Assembly: GCA_951813045.1 (NCBI GenBank)
Contig: CATOTF010000002.1
Location: forward strand, 434,001-498,000
Reading direction: 5' to 3'
DNA length: 64,000 bases
DNA from: an uncultured Rhizobiaceae bacterium
GTDB taxonomy: Bacteria; Pseudomonadota; Alphaproteobacteria; Rhizobiales; Rhizobiaceae
In this document: piece by piece, positions 54,764 through 56,869 of the stretch
Layout of the letters: each line of letters opens with the position of its first letter
Position numbering within the stretch: position 1 is the stretch's first letter
Notes under the pieces: generated by a model
What the model was told of the DNA's origin: nothing
What the model saw: only the letters and a program-made list of their open reading frames with translations
Database searches by the model: none
Made by a program: the position numbers and the translations under genes

Positions 54764-56869
54764 ATGTCGAACCTCTCCCGTCTTCTCAACCCGCAAACCA
54801 TCGCAGTCATTGGTGGCAAGGAGTGCGCGCAGGTTGTTGAACAGTGCGACAAACTTGGATTCACAGGCACTATATGGCCTGTTCATCCAACACGAGAGAG
54901 CCTCGGTGGCCGTGCTTGTTTCAGGTCTGTGGAAGACTTGCCCCAAGTGCCTGACGTGGCTTATGTCGCGGTTAATCGGGAATTGACCATCGACGTGGTT
55001 GCCGTCTTATCTAGGCTGAGTTGTGGTGGTGCCGTCTGCTATGCCGCCGGTTTTGCCGAAGCCGAAGGTGAAAAAGAAGGCGCTTGCGAGCTTCAAAAAC
55101 GTTTGGTGGAAGCCGCTGGCGACATGCCGATCATAGGCCCCAATTGCTATGGCTTCATCAACACGTTGGAAAATGTGGCGCTTTGGCCCGACCAGCATGG
55201 GGCGGCCACTTGCGACAGCGGTGTTGCGATCATCACGCAATCATCCAATATCGCGATCAACATGACGATGCAAAAACGCGGCCTTCCAGTTGCCTATGTC
55301 ATGACCGCTGGTAATCAGGCCCAAATGGGGCTTTCCAAACTTGCTTTGGGCTTGCTGGAAGACGAACGCGTCACCGCACTGGGACTGCATATCGAAGGAT
55401 TGGACGATGTTAAGGCGTTCGAAAAATTGGCGTTACGCGCCCGCGAGTTGCGCAAACCGATTGTGGCAATAAAGATTGGGAAAAGCGAGCAGGCGCAGGC
55501 TGCGACTATTACCCATACGGCCTCTTTGGCGGGATCTGATACTGCCCATGATGCCCTGTTCAAACGGCTTGGCATTGCCCGCGTTCATGGCATCGAAACT
55601 TTTATTGAAACCTTGAAGTTACTGCATGTAGATGGCCCGCTGCACGGGAACGACCTGCTGTCCCTTTCCTGTTCCGGTGGGGAAGCGTCGCTGATGGCGG
55701 ACGCTGCGGAAGGGCGGAATATTTCTTACCGGCCTTATAAGCCGGACGAAGCTGCTGAGTTGAAATCGGAGCTCGGTGACATTGTCACGGTCGCAAATCC
55801 GCTCGATTACAATACATTTATCTGGGGCGACTGGCCCGCGATGACGCGCATGTTTGAGGCCGCACTTCTCCCGCGTTTTGATCTTGCACTATTGGTCATG
55901 GATTTTCCTCGCGAGGACCGGTGCGACAATGCCGATTGGCGCTACGCCACAAACAGCTTCATTGCAGCCGTCAGGCAAACGAGCGTTCGTGCTGCCGTCG
56001 TCTCAAGCATCGCAGAATGCATGCCGGAGGACATGGCGCAGCAATTAATGTCGGTGAAGATCACGCCCCTGTGCGGGTTGGAGACATCCATTATTGCCGC
56101 CGAAGCCGCTGCATTTATCGGCAAGGCCTGGGCTGAGCCTTTACCTGCGCCACTATTATCACCTTGTCATTCCCGCTACAGCGGGAATCCAGAACGTATG
56201 GCTCTGGATCGTCGCTGTGGCGACGATGACAATGGTGGGTTAATCACGCTCGATGAAGATCAATCAAAGACTGAACTCGCATCAGCTGGGGTGAACGCGC
56301 CGAACCGTATGGTGGTTTCGAACATGGTAGAAATCGAGCAGGCTTTGATGACGCTTGAGCGTCCGGTAGCTATCAAGACGCTTGGCATTGCCCATAAAAC
56401 GGAGGTTGGAGCTGTCGTCCTCAACCTTCAATCGAATGAAGAGATCATAACAGCAATTCAGAAAATGGCCCGTCTGTCAGACCGTTTTCTGGTTGAGGAA
56501 ATGGCCGCTAAACCTATGGCAGAACTCATTGTCGGCGTGACCCGTGACCTGACCTGTGGATTGATGCTGACCATAGGGGCGGGCGGTGTGTTGACGGAAT
56601 TGCTGGACGATACAGCAACAGTTTTGTTGCCCGCGAGCGAACAAGATATTCGCGATGCGGTCTCCGGTTTAAAAGTTGGCAAATTGCTCGAGGGCTATCG
56701 TGAGGCCGAAGGTGCCGATATCAATGCGCTGATCGCCAACATAATGTGCATTGCAAAATACGCCTGTGATCACGCAAATGAATTGGAAGAACTCGACGTC
56801 AACCCGCTTTTTGCCACCCAGTTTGGTGCCATTGCGGTCGACGCGCTGATTATTAAAAGGGCGCAATAG
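54764..56869 (+). CDS. Acetate--CoA ligase (NDP-forming)-family acyl-CoA synthetase
   Basis: CoA-binding domain (SRLLNPQTIAVIGG), GPNCYGFINT, C-terminal ATP-grasp (PVAIKTLGIAHKTEVGAVVLNL...ELDVNPLF). Confidence 0.88.
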   Translation: MSNLSRLLNPQTIAVIGGKECAQVVEQCDKLGFTGTIWPVHPTRESLGGRACFRSVEDLPQVPDVAYVAVNRELTIDVVAVLSRLSCGGAVCYAAGFAEAEGEKEGACELQKRLVEAAGDMPIIGPNCYGFINTLENVALWPDQHGAATCDSGVAIITQSSNIAINMTMQKRGLPVAYVMTAGNQAQMGLSKLALGLLEDERVTALGLHIEGLDDVKAFEKLALRARELRKPIVAIKIGKSEQAQAATITHTASLAGSDTAHDALFKRLGIARVHGIETFIETLKLLHVDGPLHGNDLLSLSCSGGEASLMADAAEGRNISYRPYKPDEAAELKSELGDIVTVANPLDYNTFIWGDWPAMTRMFEAALLPRFDLALLVMDFPREDRCDNADWRYATNSFIAAVRQTSVRAAVVSSIAECMPEDMAQQLMSVKITPLCGLETSIIAAEAAAFIGKAWAEPLPAPLLSPCHSRYSGNPERMALDRRCGDDDNGGLITLDEDQSKTELASAGVNAPNRMVVSNMVEIEQALMTLERPVAIKTLGIAHKTEVGAVVLNLQSNEEIITAIQKMARLSDRFLVEEMAAKPMAELIVGVTRDLTCGLMLTIGAGGVLTELLDDTATVLLPASEQDIRDAVSGLKVGKLLEGYREAEGADINALIANIMCIAKYACDHANELEELDVNPLFATQFGAIAVDALIIKRAQ
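56164..56232 (+). repeat. 69-bp cloverleaf-type palindromic element inserted in frame inside the acyl-CoA ligase gene
   Basis: TTGTCAT closing stem (56164-56170/56226-56232); arm1 TCCCGC-TACA-GCGGGA (56171-56186); arm2 ATCCAGA-N9-TCTGGAT (56187-56209); arm3 CGTCGC-TGTG-GCGACG (56210-56225); all stems abut with no unpaired junction nucleotides. Confidence 0.85.

What the first reader, a model, noticed from the sequence alone, without database searches (positions are those of the whole stretch)
56164..56232. Perfect four-way cloverleaf palindromic element inserted in frame inside a protein-coding gene
The 69-nt block TTGTCAT|TCCCGCTACAGCGGGA|ATCCAGAACGTATGGCTCTGGAT|CGTCGCTGTGGCGACG|ATGACAA consists of a 7-bp closing stem and three hairpins that abut with no unpaired junction bases. 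An extra CACC/GGTG pairing with a 1-nt bulge may extend the closing stem. Its length is a multiple of 3 and it is translated without a stop as LSPCHSRYSGNPERMALDRRCGDDDN. It lies between the CoA-ligase part and the ATP-grasp part of the acyl-CoA synthetase, a likely interdomain linker. This resembles, in principle, Rickettsia palindromic elements (RPEs) that insert into ORFs. The first arm with its flanks also fits the Neisseria dRS3 pattern ATTCCC-N8-GGGAAT. A tolerated, translated, cloverleaf-forming mobile repeat in this lineage could be a new MITE/REP-like family.
Basis: partly seen in the sequence, partly recalled or inferred. Interest (0 to 1): 0.8.

Follow-up and report, generated by a model that had tools for sequence, protein, structure and literature searches.

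The report
Repeat DNA translated inside enzyme linker
A short hairpin-forming repeat found about a dozen times between genes in this Ahrensia-like bacterium has also landed, in frame, in the floppy joint between the two halves of a metabolic enzyme; this kind of insertion is already known, but here the same joint has been hit several times by different repeats in different bacteria.

Summary
The 69-nt block at 56164-56232 is real and far from chance. It is not a new repeat class. It is a head-to-head pair of two 29-nt CGTC-1-type REP units (TTGTC tag, 8-bp stem starting AT, 4-nt loop, CCAG tail), in opposite orientation, 11 nt apart. The same genome holds 28 such units, 24 of them in 12 pairs. 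Ten pairs have 54-55 nt between unit starts (83-84 nt in all). The target pair has 40 nt and aligns as the standard element minus 14 nt of spacer, which turns an out-of-frame length (83) into an in-frame one (69). It is the only pair inside a long conserved gene. That gene is an ADP-forming acyl-CoA synthetase, and the insert lies at the alpha/beta junction, where archaeal homologues are two separate proteins. Congeneric orthologues lack it; AlphaFold leaves residues 471-490 disordered. Unrelated palindromic repeats, each a resident family of its own genome, lie in frame in the same linker of Ahrensia sp. R2A130, Pseudaminobacter soli and a third genome. Best reading: a tolerated, translated, non-autonomous REP insertion, with the linker a selection-permissive landing site. 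In-frame intragenic REPs were described in 2013 (PMC3733652).

The parts
54767..56869 (+). Host gene: ADP(NDP)-forming acyl-CoA synthetase / acetate--CoA ligase family, alpha and beta parts fused (CoA_binding_2, Succ_CoA_lig, ATP-grasp_5); an upstream in-frame GTG start at 54719 is also possible
   Evidence: ORF, Pfam, PDB sequence matches incl. separate alpha and beta chains 4xyl_A/B, Foldseek match to DddX and ACD
56164..56192 (+). REP unit 1, TTGTCATTCCCGCTACAGCGGGAATCCAG: tag TTGTC, 8-bp stem ATTCCCGC/GCGGGAAT, loop TACA, tail CCAG
   Evidence: Covariance model R1, 50.0 bits, E 4.6e-13; second copy of the core without mismatch elsewhere in the genome
56193..56203 (+). Spacer AACGTATGGCT, 11 nt; other genomic copies have about 25 nt
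   Evidence: Alignment A2 shows a single 14-nt gap in the target
56204..56232 (-). REP unit 2 on the minus strand, TTGTCATCGTCGCCACAGCGACGATCCAG
   Evidence: Covariance model R1, 44.9 bits, E 1.9e-11
56154..56163 (+). Possible outer 5' arm (TATTATCACC), pairs in part with the 3' flank
   Evidence: Weak flank conservation over 12 copies; copy-specific pairing not significant
56233..56242 (+). Possible outer 3' arm (TGGTGGGTTA), matches the GGGTT seen downstream of several other copies; would make residues NGGL part of the element
   Evidence: Flank comparison

Best explanation
The block is a head-to-head heterodimer of CGTC-1-type REP units, one of about a dozen in this genome. It inserted into the linker between the alpha-like (CoA-binding/ligase) and beta-like (ATP-grasp) halves of an ADP-forming acyl-CoA synthetase and is read through as roughly 23 extra residues. 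Shown: repeat family, dimer arrangement, absence from orthologues, open reading frame through the insert, linker position at the natural subunit split. Inferred: the insert derives from the standard 83-nt dimer and a 14-nt spacer deletion (before or after insertion) gave a frame-compatible 69 nt; the peptide is a neutral, disordered, exposed extension; purifying selection keeps only insertions that are in frame and in this permissive linker. The same linker therefore collects different REP families independently in other lineages. How CGTC REPs move is not known; no RAYT/Y1 transposase gene was found in this genome, so mobilisation would be by an unidentified enzyme or by replication-linked copying.
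For: Copies: 28 units at E <= 0.01, of which 24 form 12 +/- pairs, ten of them with 54-55 nt between unit starts. Stem covariation over 16 units: 95.3% of cells paired, 18 cells with changes on both sides against 5.9 in shuffles, 0 of 500. Unit anatomy equals the CGTC-1 description. Target aligns as an 83-nt element minus 14 nt. Orthologues in ten congeneric genomes lack this insert, and nine of them lack any palindromic insert. Only the target pair lies well inside a long ORF. Insert sits between the query regions matching separate alpha and beta chains 4xyl_A (1-363) and 4xyl_B (492-699). AlphaFold mean pLDDT 88.9 but below 50 at 471-490; the element encodes about residues 466-489. Independent linker inserts of resident repeat families: Ahrensia sp. 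R2A130/G012, G347, Pseudaminobacter soli. Carriers scattered on the tree, 13 Fitch changes for linker length. No Y1_Tnp in the genome.
Against: No empty-site allele from a close strain is available (nearest genome-level orthologue about 70% identical), so the exact insertion boundaries, any target duplication and the order of insertion and deletion are not shown. The net linker gain (17-19 aa) is smaller than the element (23 codons or more), so some host linker residues were lost or replaced. Protein expression and activity are untested. The 14-nt deletion rests on alignment of a poorly conserved spacer.
Confidence: 0.87

Rival explanations
1. The mRNA hairpin at the domain junction is functional: it slows ribosomes between the two halves and helps them fold separately, and this is why palindromes recur at exactly this spot.
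For: Strong fold in the mRNA sense; recurrence of palindromes at the alpha/beta junction in several lineages.
Against: Most orthologues have no insert, and clean linkers show no unusual fold (L036, L037, L161 z between -0.7 and +1.1); long inserts without strong fold also occur (L150, L162); in the own genome the elements are mainly intergenic, so no gene-specific role is indicated.
Confidence: 0.07
2. The inserted peptide itself was selected, for example as a longer linker that changes domain swinging or substrate channelling.
For: Present in a complete, otherwise intact gene; linker length varies widely in this family.
Against: Peptides from different element families share little sequence; disordered in the model; many close relatives do without.
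Confidence: 0.06
3. One ancestral REP insertion in the common ancestor of the Ahrensia-like clade, later lost, eroded or overwritten, rather than separate insertions within that clade.
For: Several clade members carry CGTC-type peptides or remnants in the same linker (P0001, P0002, P0003, P0006, P0022, P0031, P0032).
Against: Carriers are interleaved with clean sequences (P0004, P0025 and others); elements in G000 and G012 belong to different families, each repeated in its own genome; cases outside the clade need separate events anyway.
Confidence: 0.15

Closest known systems
CGTC-1 REP family, head-to-head heterodimers (Di Nocera et al. 2013, PMC3733652)
   Same: TGTC tag, 8-bp stem starting AT, 4-nt loop, CCA tail, two unlike units head to head with a spacer, mostly intergenic, some intragenic, no known transposase, mainly alphaproteobacteria
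   Different: Host lineage and enzyme not named in the main text of that paper (supplement not available here); the target's spacer is shortened to 11 nt
Rickettsia palindromic elements RPE-6 and RPE-4 (CGTC-1 and CGTC-4 in PMC3733652); RPE-1
   Same: Palindromic repeats read in frame inside ORFs; RPE-6 is in the same CGTC-1 family according to PMC3733652
   Different: In Rickettsia nearly half the first-described copies are intragenic (PMC10969869); here 1 of 12 pairs. Those RPEs are given as about 150 bp (PMC10969869), against 69-84 nt here
Neisseria dRS3 (ATTCCC-N8-GGGAAT)
   Same: Core of unit 1 fits the pattern; dRS3 is classed as CGTC-1 in PMC3733652
   Different: Most Neisseria elements are in large clusters (PMC3733652); unit 2 here has a GTCGC stem instead
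REPs in recB of Xanthomonas campestris and X. oryzae (PMC3733652)
   Same: Different REPs at about the same site of one gene in two species
   Different: Here several unrelated repeat families in several genera at an interdomain subunit junction

Membership tests
CGTC-1 REP | Unpaired CGTC (or TGTC) tag at one end | tested here: met
   TTGTC invariant or nearly so over 16 units; consensus
CGTC-1 REP | 8-bp stem with A-T pairs first, 4-nt loop | tested here: met
   Columns 6-13 with 19-26 paired in 95.3% of cells, most loops 4 nt
CGTC-1 REP | Short unpaired tail CCA | tested here: met
   CCAG or CTAG tail in all 16 units
CGTC-1 REP | Dispersed, repeated, mostly head-to-head dimers, mostly intergenic | tested here: met
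   24 of 28 units in 12 pairs; 11 of 12 pairs not well inside a long ORF (no gene annotation was available, ORFs only)
CGTC-1 REP | No dedicated transposase | tested here: inconclusive
   No PF01797 match in the genome; other enzymes not excluded
GTAG REP mobilised by RAYT | GTAG tag and a RAYT (Y1 transposase) gene | tested here: not met
   Tag is TTGTC; no Y1_Tnp
Rickettsia palindromic element (as a mode of insertion) | In-frame insertion in a conserved gene, absent from orthologues | tested here: met
Rickettsia palindromic element (as a sequence family) | Sequence membership in a described RPE family | not tested
   No RPE sequences were aligned here; link to RPE-6 rests on PMC3733652
MITE | Terminal inverted repeats with target-site duplication | tested here: inconclusive
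   TTGTCAT/ATGACAA ends present; no empty site available and no target duplication visible

The most novel reading that the evidence does not exclude
The alpha/beta junction of ADP-forming acyl-CoA synthetases is a recurrent landing site where unrelated palindromic repeat families insert in frame in many lineages because a hairpin or extra linker there is favoured, not merely tolerated, so that REPs act as a source of interdomain linkers.
Probability: 0.1. Interest if true: 0.7.

Novelty: new member of a known kind. Interest (0 to 1): 0.42.

Why it matters
In-frame REPs in genes are known, but single cases say little about why they persist. Here one gene with many sequenced orthologues shows the same linker hit by different repeat families in different lineages, each family resident in its own genome. 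That is a natural experiment on where proteins tolerate insertion, and a testable system for whether such insertions are neutral or useful. It also warns that odd linker peptides in these enzymes (CHSR..GNP, PRLRGDD and similar) are translated repeats, not conserved motifs.

Tried and rejected
Ancestral linker peptide: rejected, absent from congeners and about 75 Mesorhizobium-type homologues. Rfam family: none in the window. RAYT-driven mobility: no PF01797 match in the genome. Copy-specific complementarity of outer flanks as part of the element: permutation not significant, p = 0.12, though flank composition and GGGTT are weakly conserved. L162 (G361) and L150 as palindromic linker inserts: linkers are long but folding is not unusual (z -0.6 and -0.7) and L162 has only weak repeats in its genome, so they are not counted as firm cases. 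First extraction scripts picked the wrong strand or wrong units and were redone.

Full report
What is there. It folds far below shuffled sequence (z = -7.2). Two folds compete: a long single hairpin is best with RNA parameters and the four-way cloverleaf with DNA parameters.

It is a repeat. A BLAST search of the own genome gives further, mostly partial, copies, and the pattern GTCATTCCCGCNNNNGCGGGAATCCAG is found 11 times with up to 3 mismatches against 0 for the reversed control pattern. Aligning 16 units gives a 29-nt unit with a nearly constant TTGTC tag and CCAG tail; its 8-bp stem covaries (18 double-changed cells against 5.9 in shuffles, 0 of 500). A covariance model built from these finds 28 units at E <= 0.01 in the genome. 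Of these, 24 form 12 head-to-head pairs. Ten pairs have unit starts 54-55 nt apart, one 73, and the target 40. In the seven pairs aligned, one unit has a TCCCGC-type and the other a GTCGC-type stem, i.e. heterodimers; the pair with 73-nt spacing (L025/L190) has two CCCGC-type stems. The copies used to build the model match it by construction, so the model extends the count but does not independently prove the family; the control pattern and the covariation do.

Frame. Standard copies are 83 or 84 nt. The target aligns as the 83-nt form with one 14-nt gap in the spacer. 83 is not a multiple of 3, 69 is. That the deletion rescued the reading frame is an inference; it could also have been present before insertion. 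Of the 12 pairs the target is the only one well inside a long ORF.

Host gene and position. The gene is an ADP-forming acyl-CoA synthetase with CoA-binding, ligase and ATP-grasp domains. Query residues 1-363 match the alpha chain and 492-699 the beta chain of Korarchaeum ACD1 (4xyl), which are separate proteins there. The element encodes about residues 466-489, between these. AlphaFold gives mean pLDDT 88.9, with values below 50 at 471-490, and the model matches DddX and other ACD-type structures. Orthologues in ten congeneric genomes lack this element; nine have no palindromic insert in the linker, one (G012) has a different one.

Recurrence at the same linker. G012, whose linker sequence is that of Ahrensia sp. 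R2A130 (L066), carries another palindromic dimer, TGTCATCCCCGCGCAGGCG...CGCCTGCGCGGGGATGACA, in frame; pieces of it give 115 matches in that genome, the two strands of a palindrome counted apart. G347, from another family of the order, carries a CATCCCAGCGAAGGCTGGGATCCA dimer, with about 20 related places in its genome. Pseudaminobacter soli carries a CCTCCCCCTTGAGGGGGAGG-type element, with 71 matches in its genome, strands again counted apart. Linker folding is strongly non-random in these (z -4.4, -5.1, -8.0 and -4.6 for G000, G012, G347 and P. soli) and not in three clean linkers, two other clean linkers being intermediate at -2.0 and -2.7 (mononucleotide shuffles, a less strict control). 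Over 247 homologues, in-frame insertions of 10 or more residues outside the N-terminus cluster at this linker, with only three sequences elsewhere. Carriers are scattered on the tree and Fitch counting gives 13 changes for a linker at least 14 residues longer than the median; that count includes some long linkers not shown to be palindromic.

Interpretation. The inserted sequences differ while the position is shared, which points to selection on where an insert is tolerated rather than a sequence-specific target. The alpha/beta junction is a natural candidate because the two halves fold and in archaea exist separately. The movement mechanism is open: CGTC REPs are described as lacking a dedicated transposase (PMC3733652), and no Y1 transposase was found here. 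The IS-type DDE transposase about 1.6 kb downstream of the gene has no shown link.

Known or new. PMC3733652 describes CGTC-1 REPs with the same tag, stem, loop and tail, head-to-head heterodimers, intragenic in-frame copies, the equivalence of dRS3 and RPE-6 with CGTC-1, flexible linkers as a likely reason for tolerance, and a case of different REPs at about the same site of recB. The finding is therefore a new member of a known kind; the recurrence in this particular linker is the part I have not found described, though the supplement of that paper was not available.

Noticed in passing
L174 (G347), L086 (Pseudaminobacter soli), L045/L066 (Ahrensia sp. R2A130): Unrelated palindromic repeats, each resident in its own genome, lie in frame in the same acyl-CoA synthetase linker.
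   Followed up: yes
P0002 residues 1-10: The closest homologue begins MDPRLRGDDK, which looks like a translated REP overlapping the predicted start, besides a REP-like remnant (GVRGDDN) in the linker.
   Followed up: no
P0003 linker (NCHSCSGGDDK): Looks like a REP dimer eroded to its two ends, a possible deletion scar.
   Followed up: no
G000:C2 1075411/1075523, 2678915/2679026, 3928571 and others: A second, CCCCGCG-type palindromic repeat family is present in the own genome, with about 111-112 nt between paired units, resembling the one in G012.
   Followed up: partly
window 58429-59844: A DDE transposase (DUF772 / DDE_Tnp_1_6, IS-type) lies about 1.6 kb downstream of the host gene; no link to the element shown.
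   Followed up: no
12 dimer copies in G000: Flanks carry a weakly conserved pyrimidine-rich 5' side and GGGTT on the 3' side, so the true element may be about 10 nt longer on each side.
   Followed up: partly
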